From Kiloniellaceae bacterium (GTDB lineage Bacteria > Pseudomonadota > Alphaproteobacteria > Kiloniellales > J153), in the NCBI GenBank assembly GCA_021776175.1, contig JAJFGJ010000016.1, forward strand, positions 74,107-138,106: a stretch of 64,000 bases of DNA. The letters run 5' to 3'. Positions 1-60,350 of the stretch are shown here, piece by piece. The position numbers and the translations under genes were made by a program. Position 1 is the first letter of the stretch, and each line of letters starts with the position of its first letter. Below the pieces are notes generated by a model. It worked only from the letters and a program-made list of their open reading frames with translations. It was not told where the DNA came from and ran no database searches.

Positions 1-1174
1 GCTCGTTGCCCAGGCCCTTCTCGGTGCCCGCGACGCGCGCGGTATAGCCGGAAAGGAAATGATACATGGCCTGGCTCGGACTCAGGGCGCTGATCGGCGG
101 AAGCACGCCAAAGGCGTCGGCGGTCAACATGACGATATTTTTAGGATGTCCGCCACGCCCGCTTTCGCTGATGTTGGGAATGAAATTGATCGGGTAACTG
201 GCGCGAGTGTTTTCGGTAAAGCGGTTGTCGTCGAGGTCGAGTTCGCCGGTCACCTCGTTCATGGCGACGTTTTCCAGGATCGTGCCAAAGCGATGTGTCG
301 TGGCGTATATCTCGGGCTCTGCTTCGCGCGACAGGTGGATCACCTTAGCGTAGCAACCGCCCTCGAAATTGAACACACCGTTGTCCGACCAGCCGTGCTC
401 GTCATCGCCGATCAGTCGCCGCGTGCTGTCCGCGGAAAGCGTCGTCTTGCCGGTGCCCGAAAGGCCGAAGAAGATCGCCGTATCGTCGGCGGGCCCGATG
501 TTGGCCGAACAATGCATCGGCAAAACGTCGCGCAAGGGCAGCATGTAGTTCAGGACCGAGAAGATCGATTTCTTGATCTCTCCGGCATAGCTGGTACCGC
601 CCACCAAGACCAGTCGGCGGCCGAAGTGGACGACGATGAAGGTCTGGGAATTGGTGCCGTCGCGCTCCGGGTCCGCCTGCAGGTAGGGGGCATGAAGGAC
701 CGTGAAGCCGGGCGTGAAATCCTTTAATCGATCGTGCCCGGGCTGAATGAACATGTTGGCCGCGAACATGGCGTGCCAGGCGCTTTCGCTGACCACGCGT
801 ATGGGCAGCCGATAGTCGGGACTGGCACCGGCATAGAGATCTTGCACGAACAGATCGCGGTTCTGAAAATACGCCAGCACCTTGGCATGGAGGCGTTCGA
901 AACGCTCCTCGCTGGTGGCGACATTGACATCGCCCCACCAGATGTCGTCGGTGGTGGTCGGCTCGTCGACGATGAATTTGTCGAGCGGCGAGCGCCCCGT
1001 GTGCTGGCCGGTGTAGGTGACAAGCGCGCCGCCGGGCGCCAGGCGGCCATGGCCGCCTCTAATGGTGTGCTCGTAAAGCGCCGGGGCGCTCAGGTTCCAA
1101 TGGGCGGTCGCGGCATTCACGATGCCATGACGCGCCAAGCCATGCCGGCTGACAACCGGTCCGATATCGCTCAA
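1..1174 (-). CDS. pckA: Phosphoenolpyruvate carboxykinase (ATP), C-terminal part outside the window
   Basis: The enzyme decarboxylates and phosphorylates oxaloacetate to PEP, the entry step of gluconeogenesis in the cytoplasm. The reverse strand reads as an uninterrupted ATP-type PEPCK: an early TGQHTGRSP segment near residue 56, the P-loop [10 protein letters not shown] near residue 231, followed by the family's IGDDEHGW segment, and [15 protein letters not shown] near the cut end. About 391 of roughly 530 residues lie in the window. No ATG fits the N-terminus. I chose the TTG at 1172-1174, preceded by a GGGAGAG ribosome site and giving MSDIGPVV. The gene is read leftwards and its promoter should lie in 1175-1268. 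The family assignment is seen directly; the TTG start is inference. Confidence 0.95.
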
Positions 1175-1268
1175 ACTATCTCTCCCTCTCGCCGACGATG
1201 CCCTTGTTATGTCGCCGTTTCCGGCACACTGGCATAACCGCGCCTGGGATGCCAAGCACAGGCTATGG

Positions 1269-1760
1269 TTAATCCGGGGCGTGGACTAAGATTTCATTCG
1301 CGCTCAACCAGCGCACTTTGCCGAAGCCGGCGACCAGGTGGGCACTTTCCACGTGCATGCGGTAGAGCCTGAAATCGCCGAATTCGGCATAGTCGCGCGC
1401 GCTTGGGTGACGGGTCAGATACCGGCTTTTCAGGCGGTCGCGCTCATCGCCCTCCTCGAGCGGGCTCACACGGCCCAAAAGCGTGACTCGGGGTAACATC
1501 AGCGGGTCCTCCGCGCCCTGACGGGCTCCCTCATCCTCGAACAAGAGGGACGCGCGCGAGTCCAGTTTCAGGTTTTTCACGTGATCGGCCAGATCGGAAA
1601 GCAGCAGGATCGGGCTGTGGTCCCGGTCAACGCAGGCCAGCACCAGCGAGGCATAGGGCCAGCCGTTGCCATCGCGCGCCAGGGCGGTGGCAAGAGCCGC
1701 TTGCCCGGCATGGCGCAACAAAGCCCGGGCTTGCCCGGCCATGGTTTCCATGAGGTTCAA
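1269..1760 (-). CDS. Pyridoxamine-phosphate-oxidase-fold (HugZ-like) flavin/heme protein
   Basis: This 163-residue protein has the split-barrel flavin-binding pattern of the pyridoxamine 5'-phosphate oxidase superfamily. It has an N-terminal helix ([15 protein letters not shown]), then strands around [30 protein letters not shown] and the [11 protein letters not shown] and [24 protein letters not shown] segments typical of HugZ-like heme-utilisation proteins. HugZ relatives bind FMN or heme and some degrade heme; which activity this copy has cannot be read from sequence. The C-terminal extra domain of long HugZ proteins is absent, so it is the short form. It ends 94 bases from the pckA start and lies just downstream of a GlxA-type regulator on the same strand, with only 9 bases between them, so the two are probably co-transcribed. 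Confidence 0.75.
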
Positions 1761-1769
1761 TCCTTGGTT

Positions 1770-2765
1770 TTACTCGGCCGCCAGCGGGCCGCTGGGCGCG
1801 GTGTGCATGGCGCCGGTTTGGCGGGTGCTTTTGGGGACCTGTTTATACTGCTCGCGGTAGCACTTGGCGAAATGCGACGGCGACACGAAACCGCAAGCCA
1901 AGGCGACTTCCATGACCGGAAGCGAGGATTCGTTCAGCAGACGCCGGGCTTGTTGCAGGCGTAGTTGCAGATAATAGCGCCGCGGCGTGCATGCCAGGTA
2001 CTTGCGGAACAAACGCTCCATCTGGCGCGACGAAATACCGCCGCCGCGCGCGAGTTCGAGGCACGATAACGGCTCCTCCAGATTTTCCTCCATCAGCGCG
2101 ATGACTTCCAGGACCTTGGGATGCCCCAGGCCCAGGCGCACGCGCAACGGCATGCGCTGGCTGTGGCCGTCTTCCCGGATGCGTTCGTGCAGCAACTGCT
2201 CCGCGACCGCGACCGCCAGTTCGCGGCCATGATCGATTTCGATCACGTGCAGCATGAGGTCGAGCGTCGCGGTTCCGCCCGAGGCGGTGAAACGGCCCCG
2301 GTCGACGCGGAACAGCTCGGCGCCGACCTCGATATCGGGAAAGGTCTCGGCAAAGCCGGGCAGGCATTGCCAATGGATGGTGCAGCGGTATCCGGTCAGG
2401 AGGCCGGCGCGGGCCAGGATAAAAGCGCCATCCGACAAGGCACCGATACGCGCGCCTTCACGCGCGGCGCGGCGCAGCCATGCGAAGACCTGCTTGTCCT
2501 TGAAGAGGTGCGCGTCGAGGCCGCCGCATACCGCGATGTCGTCGAGCCGTCCGGCGGTTTCCGTCGAAGCCTCGGCAACGATCTCCAGGCCGTTCGAGGC
2601 CGCGACCGGCCGGCCGTCGCGCGAGACCGCGCGCCAGCGGTACAGCTCCCGCCCGCTCAAGAGGTTGGCCGCGCGCAGGGGTTCGACCGCCGAGGTGAAG
2701 GCCAGCATGGCGAACTTGGGCACCAGGAAGAATCCGAAGCTTCTGGGCGGGGCAGCGCGATTCAT
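1770..2765 (-). CDS. GlxA-family AraC-type transcriptional regulator
   Basis: The 331-residue protein has an N-terminal DJ-1/PfpI-like domain (about residues 10-190, with FFLVPKFAMLAFTSAVEPLRAAN and GGLDAH and ALSDGAFILARAGLL segments) and a C-terminal AraC-type double helix-turn-helix (about 215-315, with CLELARGGGISSRQMERLF and VMEVALACGFVSPSHFAKCY). This architecture is that of the GlxA/CdhR/GbdR family, which commonly controls catabolism of quaternary amines or amino acids. The ligand here is unknown. It shares a strand with the HugZ-like gene 9 bases downstream. Start is the ATG at 2763-2765. Confidence 0.88.
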   Translation of the reverse strand: MNRAAPPRSFGFFLVPKFAMLAFTSAVEPLRAANLLSGRELYRWRAVSRDGRPVAASNGLEIVAEASTETAGRLDDIAVCGGLDAHLFKDKQVFAWLRRAAREGARIGALSDGAFILARAGLLTGYRCTIHWQCLPGFAETFPDIEVGAELFRVDRGRFTASGGTATLDLMLHVIEIDHGRELAVAVAEQLLHERIREDGHSQRMPLRVRLGLGHPKVLEVIALMEENLEEPLSCLELARGGGISSRQMERLFRKYLACTPRRYYLQLRLQQARRLLNESSLPVMEVALACGFVSPSHFAKCYREQYKQVPKSTRQTGAMHTAPSGPLAAE

Positions 2766-2826
2766 GGCGCCAGCTTATACCAAGGCCCGCGGCCGTCCCA
2801 GGCCGAAGCCGCCGGAAAGTCCGAAC

Positions 2827-3765
2827 TTAGAACCGCCGGTCCACTCGCTCCAGGGCCGGGCGGCCGGCCCCGCCGCGTTCGATCGCCAGCGCCCGGTACT
2901 TGTCCATGCCGAGCATCATCTGCTCGCTAAAGCCGCGCGCGGCGGTGCCGACCTTCTCCGGGCGGGCTTGAGCCGGGGTTCGATCTTCCGCGCGTGAAGG
3001 CAGGGTGACGGCAGGGGCCCGGAAGGCCGGGGCCAGGCCAGTCAATTCCATCGGAAACTCAGGCTCGGCGCGCAGATCGCCGAGAAGGGCGCTGAGCGCG
3101 GCGTCCCCGGTGAGGAGTCCGGTCCGCGGTTGCGCCGCGAAAGACGCGACCGGCGAAGCGGGTTTGGCGGCTGGTTCGAGGATTGCCACCGCTTCGGGGG
3201 CCTCGGCGACCAGGGTGTCGTCCGGCGGGCTCTCGCCTACGATGCTGGCGATCAAGGTCCCGCCAAGGTCATCGCCGCTGATCTCGGCGGCGATGGCATT
3301 CACGATTCCGGCCAGCATCCCGACCGGGCCGCCGTAAAGGGCCGCGCCGGCGACCCGGGCCGGGCCGGAGATCGTATCGCCGGTCAGGTTGCGGTAAATA
3401 TTGCCGACGATGGGAATATGCTGGAGCGGATTGATGACGTCCAAGAAGTCGCCGAAGCTCAGTTCGCTTTCCGGCGCGCTGTCTTCCTGGGCGAGTTCGT
3501 TCCGGTCGCGGTCGACCGGGAGGTCGTCGCCCATGCCGCGCCGCGCCTGGCTATCCAGAGCCGCACCCTGGCGCGCGGGGGAAAACCAGGGCGTGCCGGC
3601 GCGCGCGCCTTCCTCGAAAAGCTCTTCAACGAAGGGCGTGGCAGCCGCCACCGGTTCGCCGCTTGGCGCCGGAGTTCCGCCAAGGCCGGCAACGGCCGGT
3701 CCGGGCCCGGAAAGAAGCGCGCGCAGGTATTCCATCGCTAGGTAAGGAAGCAATATCGAGGCCAT
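2827..3765 (-). CDS. Hypothetical protein with a conserved glycine-rich hydrophobic core
   Basis: I do not recognise a characterised family. About 312 residues are read from the ATG at 3765; a TTG two codons upstream is an alternative, and neither has a clear ribosome site. The ends are low-complexity, Ala/Pro-rich and probably disordered. The centre (about residues 100-165) is ordered-looking: an acidic stretch, then SFGDFLDVINPLQHIPIVG, then a glycine-rich hydrophobic run (VAGAALYGGPVGMLAGIVNAIAAEI) that could be a membrane-active or glycine-zipper helix. There is no signal peptide. The C-terminus has a second short motif (GFSEQMMLGMDKYRALA). It sits between the GlxA regulator and a Gfo/Idh oxidoreductase read in the opposite direction. 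Confidence 0.65.
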   Translation of the reverse strand: MASILLPYLAMEYLRALLSGPGPAVAGLGGTPAPSGEPVAAATPFVEELFEEGARAGTPWFSPARQGAALDSQARRGMGDDLPVDRDRNELAQEDSAPESELSFGDFLDVINPLQHIPIVGNIYRNLTGDTISGPARVAGAALYGGPVGMLAGIVNAIAAEISGDDLGGTLIASIVGESPPDDTLVAEAPEAVAILEPAAKPASPVASFAAQPRTGLLTGDAALSALLGDLRAEPEFPMELTGLAPAFRAPAVTLPSRAEDRTPAQARPEKVGTAARGFSEQMMLGMDKYRALAIERGGAGRPALERVDRRF

Positions 3766-3919
3766 GTTCAACTGTTTGATTTCACGGCTTTTTTTCTACA
3801 ACCCCAGGCTCGCGGGGGCGCCGCCCGGCAGATCTTGCTTAGGCGGCGTGGACCTTTGTGTCCAAGGCATCCGCCCCTTAGATTGGCGGCCCAAGAACGC
3901 CATCTGAAAAGGAATCGCT

Positions 3920-4882
3920 ATGAAACCCCGGATCGCCTTCATCGGGCTCGGCATCATGGGTCACCGTATGTTGACCAATATGACCGCCCATGGTGGATTC
4001 ACGCTGCTTGGCGGCTGGGATCCCAGCCCGGCGGCGGCCGCGCGGACCCGTGCCGCCTTCCCCGATCTGCCGATTGCCGAGACCGCCGGGGCCTTGATCG
4101 CCGATCCGTCGGCCGATGTCGTCTACATCGCCTGCCCGCCTGGGGCGCACAGGGTCCAGGCCTTGGCCGCCATGGATGCCGGCAAGGCGGTATTTTGCGA
4201 AAAGCCCCTGGGCGTCGACCTGGCGGACAGCCGGGAAATGGTCGCGCGGGCCGAGGCGGCGGGGGCCAAGAACGCCGTCAACTTTCCCTTCGCTGACGCC
4301 CAGGCGGTCAACGCCATGCAGGCGGCGCTGGAATCCGGGGCGGTGGGGGCGGTGGCCGGGGCCGATGTGCGTCTGCACTTCGCCCGCTGGCCGCGCGCCT
4401 GGCAGGCGGACGCGGCCTGGCTGGCCGAGCGCGCCGAAGGCGGTTTCGTGCGCGAGGTCTATTCCCACTTCGCTTACCTGACCCAGCGTCTTCTCGGTCC
4501 GGCTAAACTGGTTCATGCCTCGGTCCGCTATCCGGCCGACCCGGCGTTGTGCGAAACCCACTTCCTGGCCCGCTTCGACTGTGACGGTGTGCCGGTCTCG
4601 GTGGCCGGCAGCTCGGGCGGCGTTGGGCCGGATCGGATCGAATACACGCTCTGGGGCGCGAAAACCTCTTACCGCCTGTGGGACTGGAACCGCCTGCAAT
4701 CGACCACCGGCAGCGAATGGCGCGATGAACTGACCGGAATCGAGGACCCGCGCCAGGACGGTTATAGGCGCATGCTCGACAACTTCCGCGCCTTTCTGGC
4801 CGGTGAGCCCAACACCATGCCCAGCTTTCGCGAAGCCCTGGCGGTCCAGGAACTGGTCGAGGGAATTTTGGAAAGCCGCTAA
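3920..4882 (+). CDS. Gfo/Idh/MocA-family NAD(P)-dependent oxidoreductase (copy 1)
   Basis: A cytoplasmic 320-residue dehydrogenase acting on a sugar, polyol or related hydroxy compound; the substrate is unknown. The N-terminal Rossmann fold starts at once with IGLGIMGHR (about residues 7-15). The family's EKPLG motif, whose lysine is used in catalysis or cofactor binding, is near residue 95. The C-terminal alpha/beta domain carries VAGADVRLHF and the HFAYLTQRL segment. The start ATG at 3920 follows AAAAGGAA. The stop overlaps that of the convergent YbaK-type gene by four bases. A clear paralogue lies at 19045-20004, alike along its whole length, including VGAVAG.D.RLHFA.WPR and the C-terminal NTMPSFREAL. 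This copy has no transporter neighbour. Confidence 0.88.
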   Translation: MKPRIAFIGLGIMGHRMLTNMTAHGGFTLLGGWDPSPAAAARTRAAFPDLPIAETAGALIADPSADVVYIACPPGAHRVQALAAMDAGKAVFCEKPLGVDLADSREMVARAEAAGAKNAVNFPFADAQAVNAMQAALESGAVGAVAGADVRLHFARWPRAWQADAAWLAERAEGGFVREVYSHFAYLTQRLLGPAKLVHASVRYPADPALCETHFLARFDCDGVPVSVAGSSGGVGPDRIEYTLWGAKTSYRLWDWNRLQSTTGSEWRDELTGIEDPRQDGYRRMLDNFRAFLAGEPNTMPSFREALAVQELVEGILESR

Positions 4883-9013: not shown

Positions 9014-9190
9014 GGCACGATCATACATTAATTTTAATAATCCATCACCGGAAATCAAATCGCTTGTCAAGGTCCCATAAACGTTGTGAGACTTAACGCT
9101 TCATTGATTCGTTGTGCCTGGGAATATGAATTCAGATTGGCTTTACCGCAGAAGGCCGTGGCGCCGCCTCAATCGCGGCGGGTGGGCGCC

Positions 9191-10261
9191 ATGACCGGTC
9201 CTCGCCGGCTGCTTCGCCTCGGTTTGCTGGTCATCGTTCCCGTGGCGGCGGTAGCCGCCAGCGCCTACTTCTATGCGCTCGGCGGCCGCCATGTGTCGAC
9301 CGACAACGCCTATGTGCGCGCCGACGTGGTCGCCATCAGTACCGAGATCGACGGCCGCGTCGCCCTGATTCTGGTCGACGACAACCAGTTCGTGTCGGCG
9401 GGTCAGCTCTTGTTCGAAATCGACCCCGAGCCGTTCCAGATCGAGTTCGCCGCCGCCGACGCCGAGCTGTCGATGGTCCGCCTGCAGATCGAATCCCTGC
9501 GCGCCCAGTACCGGGAAAGCGAGGTCGAAATCCGCGCCGCCAAAGAGCGCATCCGCTACCTCAAGCTAGAGTACGAGCGTCAGCGCGAATTGAGTTCCAG
9601 GGGCCACGGATCGCGCGCCCGCTTCGAGGCGGCGGAGCACGATCTTAAGACCGCGCGCCAGCACACCGATGCGCTCCGGCAGCGGGAACTTATGGTGATC
9701 GCCGATCTCGGCGGCGAACCGAACCTGCCCATGAAACAGCATCCCCGCTACATGCGGGCCCAGGCGGCACGCGATCGCGCCGCCCTCGATCTGGAACGCA
9801 CCTTGGTCCACGCGCCGCTATCTGGATATCTCGGCAATGTCACCCTTGAGGTTGGCGAGCAGGTGGAGGCCGGCGAAAGCGTGTTTCCCCTGGTCGCCAC
9901 CGGCGATCCCTGGGTCGAGGCCAACATGAAGGAGGTTCACCTGACCTATGTCGAGGTCGGGCAACCGGCGATAGTCGAGATCGACAGCTACCCGGATCAC
10001 GTCTGGAAGGCGTCCGTGGAGAGCATCAGCCCGGCCACCGGCGCCGAGTTCGCGCTGTTGCCGGCCCAAAATGCCACCGGCAACTGGGTCAAGGTGGTCC
10101 AGCGGGTACCGGTCAAGCTGCGCCTCAACCTGCCGCCCAACATGCCGCCGCTCAGAGCCGGCATGACGGCGACGGTGGAGATCGACACCGGTCACGAGCG
10201 CCCGCTTGGCGCTCTTATAGAGAGCGTGTTGGCGGGGACCGGCGGCGGCGATGGGCGCTGA
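9191..10261 (+). CDS. HlyD/EmrA-family membrane fusion protein
   Basis: The periplasmic adaptor of a multidrug efflux pump, 356 residues. One N-terminal membrane helix (about 10-32) is followed by the biotinyl-lipoyl half motif (VSTDNAYVRADVVAISTEIDGRV), a long coiled-coil hairpin (about 85-165), the second lipoyl half (LVHAPLSGYLGNVTLEVGEQVEAG) and a beta-barrel domain ending in LRAGMTATVEID. The ATG at 9191 follows a weak GGTGGG. A GTG at 9086 would add 35 residues with no sequence features and would read through the presumed promoter region. It overlaps the MFS gene by 11 bases, so the two are translationally coupled. Confidence 0.85.
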   Translation: MTGPRRLLRLGLLVIVPVAAVAASAYFYALGGRHVSTDNAYVRADVVAISTEIDGRVALILVDDNQFVSAGQLLFEIDPEPFQIEFAAADAELSMVRLQIESLRAQYRESEVEIRAAKERIRYLKLEYERQRELSSRGHGSRARFEAAEHDLKTARQHTDALRQRELMVIADLGGEPNLPMKQHPRYMRAQAARDRAALDLERTLVHAPLSGYLGNVTLEVGEQVEAGESVFPLVATGDPWVEANMKEVHLTYVEVGQPAIVEIDSYPDHVWKASVESISPATGAEFALLPAQNATGNWVKVVQRVPVKLRLNLPPNMPPLRAGMTATVEIDTGHERPLGALIESVLAGTGGGDGR

Positions 10262-54833: not shown

Positions 54834-54921
54834 ACTCTCCGAGTCACCGTTCCTGCCCGGCCCATGGGGGACGGCAGGGGTAAAACCAATGCGGCGGTCC
54901 ATCCAAGGCAGGGGAGAATCC

Positions 54922-56271
54922 ATGAAGCTATCGGCAAAATTACTTGGCGGGGCGGCAGCCGCGCTGATCTTGCTTGGCACCGCCCCGGCCCGCGCCGAAG
55001 TTAGCGCCGAAACTCAATTCGTCTTCAACAGCTTCTCGTTTTTGATCCACGGCGTCCTGGTGATGTTCATGGCGGCGGGTTTCGCCATGCTCGAATCCGG
55101 CCTGGTGCGGACCAAGAACACGGCGACCATCTGCCTGAAGAACATCGCCCTCTATTCGGCCGCCGGCCTGCTCTATTACCTCCTCGGCTACAGCCTCATG
55201 TACACCGACGTGGATAGCTATATCGGCTCCTTCAGCCTGTTCTATAATTCCTCGGCCGAGGAGTTGGCGCTGCTCAACGCCGAGGAGGCGACGGCCGAGC
55301 TCATCGCGCCCGTCGTCGAGGGCGGCTACTCGGTCATGTCCGACTGGTTCTTCCAAATGGTTTTCGTGGCCACCGCCGCCTCGATCGTCTCAGGCACCCT
55401 GGCCGAGAGGATCAAGATCTGGCCCTTCATGCTGTTCATCGTCGCGCTCACCGGCGTTATCTATCCGATCCAGGGTTCCTGGACCTGGGGCGGCGGCTGG
55501 CTGGCCGAGATGGGATTCTCGGACTTCGCCGGCTCGACCATCGTGCATTCGGTCGGCGGCTGGGCGGCGCTGAGCGGCGCCGTGATCCTGGGCGCGCGCC
55601 GGGGCAAGTACGATGCCCGCGGCAGGGTCCGGGTCATGCCCGGCTCCAACCTGCCGCTCGCGACCCTGGGCACCTTCGTCCTGTGGTTCGGCTGGTTCGG
55701 CTTCAACGGCGGGTCGCAACTGGCATTGGGATCCGCGCTCGACGTGACCGCCATGGCGATTGTTTACGTCAACACCAACTTGGGCGCCGCCGCCGGGGTG
55801 GTGGCGGCCATGGCCCTGACCCAGATCCTCTATAAGAAGATCGACCTGACCATGGCCCTCAACGGCGCCATCGCGGGCCTGGTTTCCATCACCGCCGGGC
55901 CGGACCTGCACAACCACCTCTACGCCATTGTCATCGGCGCGGTCGGCGGCTGCCTGGTCGTGGTCGCGGTGCCCCTGCTCGACCGCTTGCGGATCGACGA
56001 CGTGGTCGGCGCCATCCCGGCCCACCTGGTAGCCGGTATCTGGGGCACCCTGGCGGTCGGTATTTTCGGTTCCGGCGATTTGATCGTCCAGATCACAGGC
56101 ATCGTCGCCATCGGGGCCTTCGTCACCCTCACCAGCGCCGCCTTGTGGTTGGCCCTGAAACATACCGTCGGCATTCGGGTCAGCGAGGAGGACGAGCACA
56201 TGGGCCTCGATCAAGTCGAACTCGGCATGGAGGCCTATCCGGAATTCGGTCACGGTTCGCAAACGATTTAG
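54922..56271 (+). CDS. amtB: Ammonium transporter (Amt family)
   Basis: Conducts ammonium or ammonia across the inner membrane. 449 residues: a signal peptide (KLSAKLLGGAAAALILLGTAPARA) and eleven helices. It has the family wording FLIHGVLVMFMAAGFAMLESGLVRTKN, a first pore histidine in STIVHSVGGWAAL, FVLWFGWFGFNGGS, and the second histidine in IPAHLVAGIWGTLAVG, where most members have HGVGG; the change is conservative at the histidine itself. ATG at 54922 after AGGGGAG. No glnK gene is next to it, unlike the usual glnK-amtB pair. A sigma-54-like promoter lies upstream and a terminator downstream. Confidence 0.93.
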   Translation: MKLSAKLLGGAAAALILLGTAPARAEVSAETQFVFNSFSFLIHGVLVMFMAAGFAMLESGLVRTKNTATICLKNIALYSAAGLLYYLLGYSLMYTDVDSYIGSFSLFYNSSAEELALLNAEEATAELIAPVVEGGYSVMSDWFFQMVFVATAASIVSGTLAERIKIWPFMLFIVALTGVIYPIQGSWTWGGGWLAEMGFSDFAGSTIVHSVGGWAALSGAVILGARRGKYDARGRVRVMPGSNLPLATLGTFVLWFGWFGFNGGSQLALGSALDVTAMAIVYVNTNLGAAAGVVAAMALTQILYKKIDLTMALNGAIAGLVSITAGPDLHNHLYAIVIGAVGGCLVVVAVPLLDRLRIDDVVGAIPAHLVAGIWGTLAVGIFGSGDLIVQITGIVAIGAFVTLTSAALWLALKHTVGIRVSEEDEHMGLDQVELGMEAYPEFGHGSQTI

Positions 56272-56315: not shown

Positions 56316-56351
56316 GACGATCCCGGTCCGCGCCCTGTTCGGACCGACCTG

Positions 56352-56384
56352 GCCCGGAAGGCAACCGCCTTCCGGGCTTATTTT
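56352..56384 (+). terminator. Rho-independent terminator of the ammonium transporter gene
   Basis: A perfect 11-bp stem GCCCGGAAGGC/GCCTTCCGGGC (56352-56362 with 56367-56377), a four-base loop and TTATTTT. The left 23-bp repeat of the integrated island begins inside its T-run at 56381. Confidence 0.92.
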
Positions 56385-56403
56385 CGCCCACTTGCCCCGC
56401 GAA
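56381..56403. repeat. Left direct repeat of the island (attL-like)
   Basis: 23 bases identical to 59037-59059. It starts in the T-run of the ammonium transporter terminator. The base before (A) and after (C) differ from those at the right copy (T and T), so the repeat is exactly 23 bp. Confidence 0.85.
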
Positions 56404-56491
56404 CGAGCGCTTTGAATGTTAGCTTTTAGCGTATTACGTCGGCTTCACGCCAACACCCATTCACTATCGCACAGGCAGGGAGCAGCAAGTG

Positions 56492-57571
56492 TCAGTCTTC
56501 CCAATCCTCATCAAAGGCAATCGGGTCAATTGGTGGCCGACCATAGAACGCCTGCCGGTGCATGTGAATGTTTACCCGCGCAGCGACGTTCTTCTGAGGC
56601 GTGTCAATGCCTAACTCTTCATTGATCGCCGTGTTTTGGATCATTTCTTCACCCCAGATCCCGAGATTGCCGTCCCATTCGGGGCTGTTCACAGTGGCAA
56701 GCGCCGCGTCCCGGAAATCCCATTCATCCTCCTTGTTCCGCGCGATGTGCCAAGTCCGTTCGGTTGGGTAATCCACACGATCAAGTGGACGGTTCGCGAA
56801 GCCCCCGATTTCACGCGGGCGTGTACTGCCCCAATCTCCATAGATGATCCGCGCACGGTTCGAGTTCCTCGCAACTTGATCCAACAGTTGCCGATTATTA
56901 AAGGGAACCGTCGTGGGTTCGTCCGCACTAAATGAGGTGAACATCTTCGGGATCGACGTGCAGGAAAGGACGATTGGCACGGTAGCGTCAATCGCTTGAA
57001 GACTCCCCGCAATGACGCCGTCAAACCACACTGCAAGGCTCAGCGGATCGCGTGTCCAACCACCTTCCAAGATGATCGCAAAATCCGCCGCCCCGCCAGC
57101 GGCGAATGCATCCACGATATCTTCAATGTTCTCCGGGAAGCGGTCCCGCACTATCCGCATGCAATATGGACGCTCTAGGACTTGGAATGCTTCGATCTGT
57201 GTTCTGATTTCCGCCTCAGATTGTCCGCGCGATTGAATGCACGGCCAAACACGTTCATGCTCTCTGACGAATGCAATCCATTTCCCAAAGCAGTCTGCAG
57301 GATCCATAAGTTGCGCTAATGTGCGCTGCGTCTCACTCTCAAGGTTGGTGAACTGATAATCCCGGTCAATATCCAGAAAGTAAGGGCGGTTGGGAAACCC
57401 CCTTTGAATCCTTGTGATTGTGCGCCCGAGAGAGTTCGAGTTGGCCCACGGGGCGAGCAAGAAACAAGGAATCATCAGATCCTTCGTCGCACCTGGTAAG
57501 AACTCAAGCCCATTCATTTCACTGGCACGGACCGCCAGCGTTGGAACGTAGGACTTGTTCTCAAGGACCAT
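56492..57571 (-). CDS. Beta-family protein (T4 beta-protein-like)
   Basis: 359 residues, last gene of the island operon. The N-terminus KSYVPTLAVRASEMNGLEFLPGATKDLMIPCFLLAPW and the RPYFLDIDRDY strand follow the pattern of the Beta protein family (T4 beta protein, PF14350-type). These begin with Y-V-P-x-L, a K-D-x-x-x-P segment and a strand ending in an acidic pair. RPYCMRIVRDRFPENIEDIVDAFA in the middle also fits. The biochemical role of the family is unknown; members turn up on phages and in mobile or defence regions, often beside ImmA/IrrE-type genes. The ATG at 57569-57571 is nine bases after the peptidase stop. Lower GC than the flanking genes. Confidence 0.7.
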   Translation of the reverse strand: MVLENKSYVPTLAVRASEMNGLEFLPGATKDLMIPCFLLAPWANSNSLGRTITRIQRGFPNRPYFLDIDRDYQFTNLESETQRTLAQLMDPADCFGKWIAFVREHERVWPCIQSRGQSEAEIRTQIEAFQVLERPYCMRIVRDRFPENIEDIVDAFAAGGAADFAIILEGGWTRDPLSLAVWFDGVIAGSLQAIDATVPIVLSCTSIPKMFTSFSADEPTTVPFNNRQLLDQVARNSNRARIIYGDWGSTRPREIGGFANRPLDRVDYPTERTWHIARNKEDEWDFRDAALATVNSPEWDGNLGIWGEEMIQNTAINEELGIDTPQKNVAARVNIHMHRQAFYGRPPIDPIAFDEDWED

Positions 57572-57580
57572 GCTCTTTCT

Positions 57581-58099
57581 TTACACCTCTGCGTATGTGG
57601 ACAGGCGAATTTCCATCGCAGCCTTCGACACTTCGAAGCTTGCCGCAAGACTTTCAATTGTAACCTCAGTCACTACCCCACTAAAATCCCTGCTCAGCTT
57701 TTTCTCAATTAGCTCCATCGGCATCACTAATTCAGCGGCAAGGCGGTTGGCCTCATACTCGATTCTCTCAGGCGCACCTGAGCGATAAAGCACGTTGTCA
57801 GTGATCCCGTCCGGCAAGCTGTCAATCACATGTCGGTGCAGCAAGTAATGTGCCAGTTCATGCGCAATGGTAAAGCGCTGCCGTTCTCGCGCCTCATTCC
57901 GGTTCACGCGGATGATGTAACGACCATTCTTATTCGTGATTTGCCCAGAAACACCGGTGCGCATACTGGAAACCTTGATACCACTTACACCGATTTCCCG
58001 CGCTAAGCTCCCTAGCTTCACCGGATATTCAGAAAGATATTTGTCCACAATTTCTTTATGCTCTGGACTGACTTTCCGCAGCTCCCTCGAAGGCATCAT
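57581..58099 (-). CDS. ImmA/IrrE-family metallopeptidase
   Basis: 172 residues, cytoplasmic. The zinc motif is HELAH in RFTIAHELAHYLLHRH, with the downstream glutamate region YEANRLAAELVMP; both are diagnostic of the ImmA/IrrE (COG2856) family. The N-terminus PVKLGSLAREIGVSGIKV is the usual family lead. Such peptidases cut repressors of mobile elements (ImmA) or stress regulators (IrrE). Their usual partner, an HTH repressor, is not encoded in the island, so the target is elsewhere or is one of the other two proteins. ATG at 58097-58099 with a strong AGGAGA. Six bases after the membrane gene, nine before the Beta gene. Confidence 0.9.
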   Translation of the reverse strand: MMPSRELRKVSPEHKEIVDKYLSEYPVKLGSLAREIGVSGIKVSSMRTGVSGQITNKNGRYIIRVNRNEARERQRFTIAHELAHYLLHRHVIDSLPDGITDNVLYRSGAPERIEYEANRLAAELVMPMELIEKKLSRDFSGVVTEVTIESLAASFEVSKAAMEIRLSTYAEV

Positions 58100-58105
58100 T
58101 TTCTC

Positions 58106-58507
58106 CTATCTCTCGCCTGTATCTGTGGGATCAAAACCCTCTTCCAGTTCATCCATTGTAGGGGGCCTTTTGTTCCTGAACGCGATTTCATCAATGCGGG
58201 CTTTGATCACATCATCTGAAAGTGCCTCATCTGCTCGCTTTTGGGCGGCCATCTCTGCCTTTTCACTCAATTCTCTGAAAGTGAATGCCGCCACGATACC
58301 GATGAAGATGGCAACCGCAGCCAGTACCACAGTCACCGCCGTCATCATGACACTGACAAAGCTTAGATATGTTGGAAGGCTCAGCGCCGGTTCTTCTTGC
58401 GTACCGGGGATGCCATCCAGCTTGTCCACAACGCCGAGGGACAATAGCAGGTAGCAGACGATCACCCCGCCGACGAACGCGGCAGCATACCCAGCCACCT
58501 TCATCAC
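58106..58507 (-). CDS. Small membrane protein of the island operon
   Basis: 133 residues, no family recognised. Helix 1 is at about 5-27 (GYAAAFVGGVIVCYLLLSLGVV). A loop of about 20 residues follows, then a long hydrophobic segment at about 47-75 (SFVSVMMTAVTVVLAAVAIFIGIVAAFTF) and a charged cytoplasmic tail of about 55 residues with an acidic end (TMDELEEGFDPTDTGE). It starts at the GTG at 58505-58507 or at the ATG directly after it, with GAGG upstream. It is the first gene of the operon, so it is made before the peptidase and the Beta protein. A role as membrane effector or sensor is inference. Confidence 0.7.
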   Translation of the reverse strand: MMKVAGYAAAFVGGVIVCYLLLSLGVVDKLDGIPGTQEEPALSLPTYLSFVSVMMTAVTVVLAAVAIFIGIVAAFTFRELSEKAEMAAQKRADEALSDDVIKARIDEIAFRNKRPPTMDELEEGFDPTDTGER

Positions 58508-58539
58508 TGCACCCTCGTCAATGCCGCGCTCACCATTTT

Positions 58540-58568
58540 AATATATGTTCTTGATATGTTCTTGTCAA
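58540..58568 (-). promoter_or_regulatory. Near-consensus promoter of the island operon with tandem 11-bp repeat
   Basis: On the minus strand TTGACA (58563-58568) and TATATT (58540-58545) are exactly 17 bases apart, 33 bases before the first start codon. The spacer is filled by two perfect tandem copies of an 11-base unit (58543-58553 and 58554-58564, ATATGTTCTTG on the plus strand). A repressor bound there would block RNA polymerase directly. Confidence 0.75.
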
Positions 58569-58569
58569 C

Positions 58570-59036
58570 ATGAGGCCTACAACAAACTCTAACCAGGGTT
58601 GATCCCCGTCAGAGATGACCGCGGACGCAGCCCTTTGCAACGCTCAAATGCTTAAACCTTTCTATCTTTGGTCGCAATGCAAGCAGTGTGGCGGGAATCC
58701 AATACCGACCCTAACGTCCACTTACGGAAAACCACGAAGTGAGCTCGCGAGTACAGCAAAGGCCCGGAATCCTCCACGAAACCACCGGGAGCGGGCCTTT
58801 GGCCAAAGCCCGGTTCGTCCGCTTAGGGGTCGTTCGTATAACCAGGGGCTAGTGGCTGCTTTAGGTCGATTACAGCCTTTTAGATGAGTGGCTAGCAAGT
58901 CATTGAAGACCCATCCTGGCTACACCCGTACTCTCTCACCGCACGGGCACGGCGACCGCTCTCATCCGTTGAGCCGAGATGCGCACCCGCTTTGCTCTCT
59001 CAACGCATCGGATTTCAAACTGACCCACCACCTGGT
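58570..59036. other. Non-coding right part of the island
   Basis: About 470 bases without a convincing gene. It holds one notable structure: CAAAGGCCCG (58757-58766) faces its reverse complement at 58792-58801 across 25 bases. Short open frames here have no ribosome sites and no recognisable protein. It may hold an RNA, recombination sites, or decayed sequence. Confidence 0.5.
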
Positions 59037-59059
59037 TTTTCGCCCACTTGCCCCGCGAA
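59037..59059. repeat. Right direct repeat of the island (attR-like)
   Basis: 23 bases identical to 56381-56403. The right copy continues into TCGGCGGGG, so CCCCGC (59051-59056) and GCGGGG can pair. In the reconstructed empty site the repeat would be one arm of a small hairpin downstream of the transporter terminator. Confidence 0.85.
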
Positions 59060-59132: not shown

Positions 59133-60350
59133 TTGAGCGCAGCGCGATCGATCCTGAAATACTATCCCTTTGGCCGCCTGAGCCAGTTGCTCGACGGCCA
59201 CGCGCCGGGCGATCCCAAGATCGACCTGCCGGGGCTGGCCAAGGGCGCGCCGGTTCTGCTTTCGATCGGGGAACCGCAGGACGCGCCGCCGCCCTTCATC
59301 GCCGAGGAAATGGCCAAGGCGGCGGCCTCCTGGTCGCGCTATCCCCCGGCGCGCGGCACGCCCGAGTATCTGGAGACCTGCGCCGCCTGGCTGAACCGGC
59401 GCTATGGCCTGCCGCCCGGGACGATCGATCCCAAGACCATGATCCTGGCGATCCCGGGCTCGCGCGAGGGGCTGTTCTTCGCCGCCCTGGCGGCCATGCC
59501 GGAGCGCGCCGCGAACGGCCCGGCGCCGGCCATGCTCATGCCCAATCCCTGCTACCACGTTTATCCGGGCGCCGCCCTTGCCGCCGGGGCGGAGCCGGTC
59601 CCGGTTCCCGCGACCCGCGACAGCGGCCACCTGCCCGATTACGCCGCCCTGCCGGAGGCCGAGCTGGCGCGGTGCGTCCTGGCCTACTACTGCACGCCCG
59701 CCAATCCGCAGGGCGCGGCGGCCAGCGGGGCCGAGCTTCAAAAGCTTATCGTCCTGGCCCGCCGGCACGATTTCATCCTGGCTGTCGACGAGTGCTATGC
59801 CGAGATCTACACCGGCGATCCACCGGCCGGTGCCTTGCAAGCGGCGGCGGCCCTGGGCGGTTCGCTCGACAATCTTCTAGTGTTCCATTCCCTGTCGAAG
59901 CGTTCCAGCGCCCCCGGCCTGCGCTGCGGATTTGCCGTCGGGGCTCCGAACCTGATCGCGGCCTTGGAGGTCATGCTGCGCACCGGCGGCGCGGGTGTGC
60001 CCTTTCCAACTCTGGCCGCCGGCGCGAGGGCGTGGCGCGAGGAAGACCACGTCCTGGCCAACCGGGCGCGCTACCGCGAGAATTTCGAGATCGCCGAACG
60101 GGTGCTCGGCAATCGTTACGGATTCCGTAAGCCCGATGGCGGATTCTTTCTCTGGCTCGATGTCGGCGACGGGGAAGCGGCGGCGCTGACCCTGTGGCGC
60201 GAGGCGGGATTGCGGGTTTTGCCGGGCGCCTACATGGCGCGCCCAGGGCCCGATGGCGTGAATCCGGGCGAGGCCTACATCCGGGTCGCCCTGGTCTACG
60301 GCCCGGAATTGACCGAGGCGGCCTTGAACCGCCTGAGCGAAGTCCTCTAG
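59133..60350 (+). CDS. PLP-dependent class I/II aminotransferase (DapC-like)
   Basis: 405 residues, fold-type I. The PLP lysine is in VFHSLSKRSSAPGLRCGF (about residue 254), and the Asp and Tyr that hold the cofactor are in AVDECYAEIYT. NPCYHVYPGAALAAGAEPVPVPA and YYCTPANPQG are typical of the succinyldiaminopimelate transaminase (DapC) and related group, and the C-terminal arginine is in YIRVALVYG. Lysine biosynthesis is therefore plausible but the exact substrate is not certain. There is no suitable ATG; the TTG at 59133 gives the best N-terminus. Its upstream region is now interrupted by the island, 74 bases away. Confidence 0.85.
   Translation: MSAARSILKYYPFGRLSQLLDGHAPGDPKIDLPGLAKGAPVLLSIGEPQDAPPPFIAEEMAKAAASWSRYPPARGTPEYLETCAAWLNRRYGLPPGTIDPKTMILAIPGSREGLFFAALAAMPERAANGPAPAMLMPNPCYHVYPGAALAAGAEPVPVPATRDSGHLPDYAALPEAELARCVLAYYCTPANPQGAAASGAELQKLIVLARRHDFILAVDECYAEIYTGDPPAGALQAAAALGGSLDNLLVFHSLSKRSSAPGLRCGFAVGAPNLIAALEVMLRTGGAGVPFPTLAAGARAWREEDHVLANRARYRENFEIAERVLGNRYGFRKPDGGFFLWLDVGDGEAAALTLWREAGLRVLPGAYMARPGPDGVNPGEAYIRVALVYGPELTEAALNRLSEVL

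What the first reader, a model, noticed from the sequence alone, without database searches (positions are those of the whole stretch)
56381..59059. Small island bounded by a perfect 23-bp direct repeat at the amtB terminator
The repeat copies at 56381-56403 and 59037-59059 are identical over 23 bases and differ on both sides. The interior is lower in GC, has its own promoter and operon, and lacks any recombinase. Taking out one copy plus the interior restores a plausible amtB-terminator/aminotransferase intergenic region. This is the structure of an integrated element that depends on an integrase encoded elsewhere, and it uses a terminator-adjacent site instead of a tRNA gene.
Basis: partly seen in the sequence, partly recalled or inferred. 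Interest (0 to 1): 0.85.

Follow-up and report, generated by a model that had tools for sequence, protein, structure and literature searches.

The report
Transposase-less defence cassette, left end lost
Between two housekeeping genes sits a 2.6-kb, three-gene module, predicted to be a phage-defence system, whose ends match a family of gene cassettes that lack the transposase for those ends, recur with different cargo in related bacteria and were likely moved by an IS1-like enzyme encoded elsewhere in the genome.

Summary
The 23-bp direct repeat is real and is the longest exact repeat in the window, but it is probably not an integrase attachment site. The island's right end (window 58913-59032) belongs to a ~120-bp end family found in 15 of 61 genomes of the order. 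Its partner, a ~135-bp left end, is present without profile positions 1-25. Complete members have ~21-bp terminal inverted repeats (GGTAGTGTCTCAGTTTGAAAT); 7 of 24 left-right pairs in the loci fetched from the window's family have a perfect 8-bp target duplication (control mean 0.09). They hold unrelated cargo; one tested cassette has clean empty sites in two sister genomes. The same tips bound IS1-like transposons in many bacteria (32 of 43 pairs with perfect 8-bp duplications). One intact copy lies in this genome; its tip differs from the island's right tip by one base in 21. So the island is best read as a mobile insertion cassette of an IS1-like transposon, carrying a membrane-protein + ImmA/IrrE + Beta operon. 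The 23-mer is the flank upstream of dapC, copied to the left when the left tip was lost at a CGAA microhomology. The same site in a sister species holds a cassette array including a Septu-like pair. Helper use, defence and junction history are inferred.

The parts
54889..56271 (+). amtB-type ammonium transporter gene (left neighbour, context)
   Evidence: NCBIfam TIGR03644 2.9e-171
56351..56378 (+). intrinsic-terminator-like hairpin after amtB; its T-tract region is the insertion site
   Evidence: consensus scan: 2 found, shuffles mean 3.7; sequence
56381..56403 (+). left copy of the 23-bp repeat: a copy of the dapC-side flank in the place of the lost left tip
   Evidence: interpretation inferred
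56400..56454 (+). left-end (LE) remnant, LE profile positions 26-81; positions 1-25 (the terminal inverted repeat) are absent
   Evidence: nhmmer E 1.6e-5
56492..57571 (-). Beta-protein gene (359 aa, PF14350); predicted alpha/beta fold, TIM-barrel-like
   Evidence: 1.4e-69; PADLOC 'beta' 7.5e-43; model pLDDT 89, only weak PDB matches
57581..58099 (-). ImmA/IrrE-type M78 metallopeptidase gene (172 aa, HELAH at residue 80)
   Evidence: 4e-22; PADLOC capP 1e-31; motif
58106..58507 (-). small hydrophobic (predicted membrane) protein gene, 133 aa
   Evidence: homologues; no Pfam hit above cut-off; membrane character judged by eye
58540..58568 (-). sigma-70-like promoter match upstream of the operon (11 of 12)
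   Evidence: consensus match only
58913..59032 (+). conserved right end (RE) of the cassette family, ending in the terminal inverted repeat at 59012-59032
59037..59059 (+). right copy of the 23-bp repeat: flank upstream of dapC
59133..60350 (+). dapC-type aminotransferase gene (right neighbour, context)
   Evidence: TIGR03538 9.7e-108, below its cut-off

Best explanation
The island is likely a transposase-less cargo cassette (mobile insertion cassette) of an IS1-like transposon family: its right end matches the conserved right end of that family, and its left end matches the family's left end except that the outer 25 profile positions are missing. An IS1-like DDE transposase encoded elsewhere, probably of the clade of the intact copy at G000:C37:109096-112101 in this genome, would recognise the two ~21-bp terminal inverted repeats and insert LE-cargo-RE with an 8-bp duplication; here the target was the T-tract region after the amtB terminator. 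Later the left tip was lost in a recombination at a CGAA microhomology, which placed 23 bp of the dapC-side flank to the left of the remaining LE; this made the 23-bp direct repeat and should have stranded the cassette. The cargo, a conserved membrane protein - ImmA/IrrE - Beta operon, is predicted to act as a toxin-antitoxin-like phage-defence module. Shown: the end family, duplications, empty sites for one cassette, the autonomous relative, and the operon's recurrence. Inferred: use of that helper, the events at the left junction, and defence.
For: RE has 7 further matches in the own genome at E<=0.01, of which 5 are RE-like, one is the left 23-mer and one a 22-bp tip of the autonomous element; a profile finds RE in 15 of 61 order genomes. 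LE and RE occur in fixed relative orientation around unrelated cargo. Of 24 LE-RE pairs, 7 have an 8-of-8 target duplication, best of 81 shifts (derangement control mean 0.09, max 2). Empty site for L058: 599 ungapped bp in G001, 589 bp with one gap in G003. The TIR 21-mer at <=3 mismatches has 59 matches in 13 of 38 genomes and none for the reversed control. Viral contigs: 31 of 47 pairs perfect (shuffled 0.76). Own genome: intact 3006-bp element, perfect duplication CGCTGTCG, 289-aa transposase. The window RE tip matches its tip at 20 of 21, sharing the GGGTCAG variant, which accompanies the transposases of G000, G055 and G060 but not those of G047, G043, G021 and G064 (9 of the 18 loci examined). 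Operon order kept in G086 and G160.
Against: The window copy itself has no left inverted repeat and no convincing 8-bp duplication (best 5 of 8). The autonomous copies share only the ~21-bp tip with the cassettes: full-length LE and RE matches in the 119 public loci were found only in L204, which has no transposase, and others are tip or short partial matches. Seventeen of the 24 pairs lack a perfect duplication. Ten of 36 duplicated public pairs carry no transposase, and two of the 26 transposase hits are weak (E about 1e-5, L192 and L250). No transposase match in the assemblies of G001-G003, which hold 6, 10 and 7 RE matches. Two of the 9 transposase loci examined (G004, G076) have no tip nearby. 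G002's version of this locus shares RE and flank, so arrival by homologous recombination is not excluded. No transposition or defence was measured.
Confidence: 0.82

Rival explanations
1. Integrase-dependent island: the 23-mer is attL/attR of a site-specific tyrosine recombinase encoded elsewhere.
For: Perfect 23-bp repeat at both edges, no recombinase inside, terminator-adjacent site.
Against: In G002 the occupants at the same site have no such copy next to a left end; only two 23-mers in the genome; the element has transposon-type ends with 8-bp duplications elsewhere; the left 23-mer abuts an LE lacking exactly its tip.
Confidence: 0.05
2. The cassette is IS1-like in origin but reached this site not by transposition here: an amtB-dapC segment already holding a cassette was imported by homologous recombination from a G002-like relative, and cargo was exchanged through the shared ends. 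This is compatible with the family assignment of the best explanation.
For: G002 holds cassettes at the same site with the same flank sequence after RE; G001, closer by dapC (86% against 80%; amtB 87% against 86%), is empty. G002 shows repeated terminator, LE and dapC-fragment units and an RE/LE fusion, so recombination at this locus has happened.
Against: RE identity to G002's first RE (82.5%) is no higher than to the unlinked cassette L058 (82.3%); the cargo differs.
Confidence: 0.35
3. The ends are bound by another transposase family (IS1595) or by an unidentified recombinase, and the likeness to IS1-like tips is coincidental.
For: IS1595 transposase matches exist in G000, G002, G003, G004 and as a fragment in G005; the cassettes' subterminal parts are not in the transposase-bearing IS1-like elements.
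Against: None of the 13 IS1595 loci has the inverted repeat at up to 6 mismatches; 26 of 36 duplicated pairs with the tip carry the IS1-like transposase; the tip variant follows the transposase clade.
Confidence: 0.07
4. The 23-bp repeat is a chance or slippage duplication with no relation to mobility.
For: The left tip is lost, so the repeat is not itself a product of transposition.
Against: It sits precisely at both edges of the insertion; the next longest exact direct repeat in 64 kb is 17 bp.
Confidence: 0.04

Closest known systems
Mobile insertion cassettes (MICs), e.g. MIC231 of Bacillus cereus and the qnrD mic (PMC3913671, passages read)
   Same: Cargo bracketed by inverted repeats, no transposase gene nearby, target duplication usual; MIC231A1 is mobilised in trans by the IS231A transposase.
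   Different: IS1-like rather than IS231 ends; long conserved subterminal regions (~135 and ~120 bp); diverse cargo (4.6 kb in the largest pair with a perfect duplication, 9.2 kb in the largest pair without one); tandem array with a fused junction in G002; the window copy has lost its left tip.
Transporter IS (tIS) and IS1-family transposons (PMC9330008 and PMC7986276, passages read)
   Same: The autonomous relatives are IS1-like elements with passenger genes and 8-bp duplications; transposase scores to NCBIfam IS1 at 5e-19 but below its cut-off.
   Different: The window element has no transposase.
TIMEs and TIME-COMPs, Tn3-derived miniature elements (PMC13367494, abstract read)
   Same: Non-autonomous ends moving cargo with a transposase in trans.
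   Different: Tn3 family; composite of two miniature elements, whereas here one LE and one RE bracket the cargo.
PD-lambda-2 defence system (PMC9519451, passages read) and CapP-type ImmA peptidases
   Same: An ImmA/IrrE-type peptidase in a small operon; weak PADLOC hits of ImmA to PD-Lambda-2_B (3.4e-7) and of Beta to PD-Lambda-2_C (1.2e-5), stronger of ImmA to capP (1e-31).
   Different: No HigB toxin and no Xre-peptidase fusion; a small membrane protein and a Beta protein instead.

Membership tests
Mobile insertion cassette (IS1-like) | Cargo without transposase | tested here: met
   three genes, none a transposase
Mobile insertion cassette (IS1-like) | Inverted repeats of a known IS type at both ends | tested here: not met
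   Right tip present (59012-59032, 1 mismatch to the own genome's autonomous tip); left tip absent, LE from profile position 26 on. Met for complete family members such as L058.
Mobile insertion cassette (IS1-like) | Target-site duplication | tested here: not met
   Window best 5 of 8; 7 of 24 pairs 8 of 8
Mobile insertion cassette (IS1-like) | Mobilised in trans by the related transposase | not testable with these tools
   needs a transposition assay
Integrase-dependent island / IME | Attachment-site repeat at both ends of occupants and one copy at empty sites | tested here: not met
   G002 has no copy at a left end; G003's empty site holds a homologue with 6 mismatches and G001's none at up to 6
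Integrase-dependent island / IME | Integrase associated with the repeat | tested here: inconclusive
   no further 23-mer in the genome; no genome-wide integrase search made
IS1-family transposon (autonomous relatives) | IS1-type DDE transposase | tested here: inconclusive
   PF03400 above cut-off in 3 of 4 transposases tested; NCBIfam IS1 53-69 bits, below cut-off 100; 6 of 15 listed plasmid copies annotated as IS1 transposase
Transporter IS (tIS) | Own transposase plus passenger genes | tested here: not met
   window lacks a transposase; the G000:C37 element meets it
PD-lambda-2 | HigB toxin and Xre-peptidase fusion | tested here: not met
   neither domain in the three genes
CapH/CapP | CapP peptidase with CapH partner | tested here: not met
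   capP-like ImmA (1e-31) but no hit named CapH among the three proteins

The most novel reading that the evidence does not exclude
One fixed pair of IS1-like ends (~135 bp left, ~120 bp right) works as an integrase-free cassette system in two families of one alphaproteobacterial order: it captures arbitrary chromosomal and defence genes, is moved by whichever IS1-like helper is present, piles up and fuses at hotspots such as amtB-dapC, and swaps cargo by recombination between the ends.
Probability: 0.35. Interest if true: 0.8.

Novelty: new variant of a known kind. Interest (0 to 1): 0.6.

Why it matters
It gives a concrete, testable route by which small defence operons and ordinary metabolic genes could move between chromosomes without an integrase or transposase of their own, with a likely helper in the same genome. 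The ends are easy to search for, so hidden cargo traffic can be counted: the 20-base tip was found in records assigned to eleven phyla, with 8-bp-duplicated pairs (7 or 8 matches) in six of them, and in viral contigs. It also explains a perfect direct repeat that looks like an attachment site but probably is not one.

Tried and rejected
Integrase attachment site: rejected because of the G002 occupants and the missing left tip. IS1595 as the helper (my first guess, from 8-bp duplications and passenger genes): transposases present but the inverted repeat is not near them. Conserved RNA structure in LE or RE: no consensus pairs. An Rfam hit at the amtB terminator (Scr4115, 31.5 bits, E 0.52) is below its cut-off of 58 and was discarded. 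Literature on Beta/ImmA: one search was useless because 'beta protein' and 'irre' match unrelated papers (15 of 3,827 listed). Combinations of IS1 family with passenger, MIC or non-autonomous terms listed only reviews and analyses of other elements (2, 2 and 5 papers); one search held 87 papers on MICs and passenger genes of which I saw 20 titles and abstract starts; a search joining defence systems, Septu and non-autonomous transposons gave none. So I found no description of these IS1-like cassettes in those searches of the held open-access library, which lacks most subscription papers. Beta-protein fold: no PDB relative by sequence; Foldseek gives only weak matches, several of them TIM barrels, none at E<=0.001. 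The ~32 bp of spacer missing at the G000 site relative to G001 and G003 is unexplained.
Full report
Observation. The 23-bp repeat is exact and in place, is the longest exact direct repeat in the window and has no third copy in the genome at up to 3 mismatches (the assembly is 89.65% complete). The interior is AT-richer (53.1% GC against 62.4% and 66.2%) and holds three minus-strand genes: a 133-aa hydrophobic protein, a 172-aa ImmA/IrrE metallopeptidase and a 359-aa Beta protein. The left neighbour is an ammonium transporter with a terminator-like hairpin at 56351-56378, the right one a dapC-type aminotransferase.

Empty and occupied sites. In same-genus genomes G001 and G003, amtB and dapC are about 240 bp apart. 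Seven further fetched loci with both genes, from other genera and families, have 250-640 bp between them. In G002 the two are separated by about 9 kb. G002's block repeats a unit of amtB-type terminator, left end, cargo, right end and dapC-side flank, with a 5' fragment of dapC at one junction and a shorter remnant at another. Its cargo includes an alpha/beta hydrolase, a GNAT acetyltransferase, a sulfatase and a Septu-like pair (PtuA 3.5e-61, PtuB 3.4e-43). The 23-mer-like sequence follows right ends there and never abuts a left end, which argues against an attachment site at both ends.

The end family. The window's right 110-120 bp has relatives elsewhere in G000, G002, G003 and G004. Fetching these showed a second conserved sequence, the left end, in fixed orientation and 1.1-9.2 kb away, with unrelated genes between. 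The ends finish in an inverted repeat, GGTAGTGTCTCAGTTTGAAAT. In the loci fetched, profiles gave 25 LE-RE pairs, the window included; one 144-bp RE/LE fusion was dropped, leaving 24, of which 7 have a perfect 8-bp target duplication (best of 81 shifts; derangement control mean 0.09, max 2) and 17 do not. None of the 24 contains one of the IS1-like transposase matches. For L058, G001 and G003 have the uninterrupted target (599 bp without gaps, 589 bp with one); G002 also lacks the insertion but is diverged around the site. A right-end model found matches in 15 of 61 genomes of the order: 8 of 9 in the window's family, 5 of 7 in a second family and 2 elsewhere. Cargo named by Pfam includes transglutaminase, FkbM methyltransferase, YceI, EamA and an FAD-binding oxidoreductase; three of ten proteins in each of these calls had no Pfam hit. 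One G000 cassette holds a pair whose best PADLOC hits are HEC-01A and HEC-01B.

The transposon behind it. Among 43 nearest inverted pairs, 32 have identical flanking 8-mers against 0.74 for shuffled partners, and the next 8 bp outward never match beyond 5 of 8. Of 36 pairs with 7 or 8 matches, 26 carry an IS1-like DDE transposase (two only as weak hits) and 10 do not. The transposase matches PF03400 above cut-off in 3 of 4 tested and NCBIfam IS1 below its cut-off. It is found in 12 of 98 relatives, in the genus only in G000 among four genomes. There the element G000:C37:109096-112101 is intact, with a perfect duplication CGCTGTCG. Its tip reads GGTAGTGGGTCAG; the window's right tip reads GGTGGTGGGTCAG. 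Of 9 transposase loci examined (of 18 returned), this variant lies beside those of G000, G055 and G060, TGTCTCAG beside those of G047, G043, G021 and G064, and neither beside those of G004 and G076.

The left junction. The left-end profile starts matching the window at its position 26. The 23-mer ends in CGAA, and the left end has CGAAC at positions 26-30. To the left lie 19 bp of the sequence that flanks dapC. So the left tip has been replaced by dapC-side flank at a 4-bp microhomology (inference). Partial collapse of an array like that of G002, or a crossover between empty and occupied alleles, would each give this; the data do not choose. The G000 site also lacks about 32 bp of spacer present in G001 and G003, unexplained. 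Without its left tip the cassette should no longer transpose (inference).

The cargo. The operon order membrane protein - ImmA - Beta is kept in G086 and G160, 2 of the 3 non-self genomes with a Beta homologue among 240 searched (the membrane gene there is recognised by position and look, since the window's protein gave no tblastn hit; the third, G075, has no ImmA hit). No inverted repeat at up to 5 mismatches lies in those two loci. Fifteen contig lengths besides the own one recur in all three top-120 homologue lists (counted by hand), which fits a conserved operon. ImmA has HELAH and resembles PADLOC capP (1e-31) and the solved IrrE and CapP proteins. Some autonomous relatives carry ImmA-type passengers: PADLOC RmrA in L267 and L232, PD-Lambda-2_B in L200 and L239. 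Defence function is a prediction.

Placing it. It works like a mobile insertion cassette, with IS1-like ends. The window copy fails two membership tests, left inverted repeat and target duplication, so it is filed as a damaged relative rather than a complete member. The novelty is a variant of a known kind; I found no description of IS1-like cassettes of this sort in the open-access library with the searches made.

Noticed in passing
L031 (G002:C28:74500-88500): Cassette array between amtB and dapC with a Septu-like PtuA/PtuB pair, a sulfatase, a GNAT acetyltransferase and a hydrolase, repeated terminator and dapC fragments, and an RE/LE fusion at 9076-9219.
   Followed up: partly
L062 (G000:C33) 25-4400: Cassette with an AAA ATPase plus small-protein pair whose best PADLOC hits are HEC-01A/HEC-01B, followed by a second right end behind a gene that looks like a methyltransferase (by eye); no second left end was found.
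   Followed up: partly
L162 6097-9102 (G000:C37:109096-112101): Intact autonomous IS1-like element with a NYN-domain passenger gene and other small genes.
   Followed up: yes
L201, L235, L246, L247, L353, L389, L447 and others: A small (~80-180 aa) protein of the look KRPADVIG or DxNQLA ... GGxxxARAxxLT recurs in elements with and without transposase (seen by eye); it may be an accessory factor.
   Followed up: no
L297, L298, L299 against L294, L295, L296, L301: Terminal inverted-repeat variant (GGGTCAG or TGTCTCAG) follows the transposase clade.
   Followed up: partly
L272 4486-5294: 809-bp element with near-perfect inverted repeats, duplication CGAAGTTC and one uracil-DNA-glycosylase-superfamily gene (PF03167) as sole cargo.
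   Followed up: partly
L437 1213-3717 and other viral-contig loci: The same tips, with 8-bp duplications, are common in IMG/VR viral contigs; one transposase-less element carries a gene that looks like a DNA methyltransferase (by eye).
   Followed up: partly
L152 1483-6801 (G002:C40): One LE-RE pair without target duplication contains an ORF that looks like a transposase of another IS family (by eye), perhaps a nested insertion.
   Followed up: no
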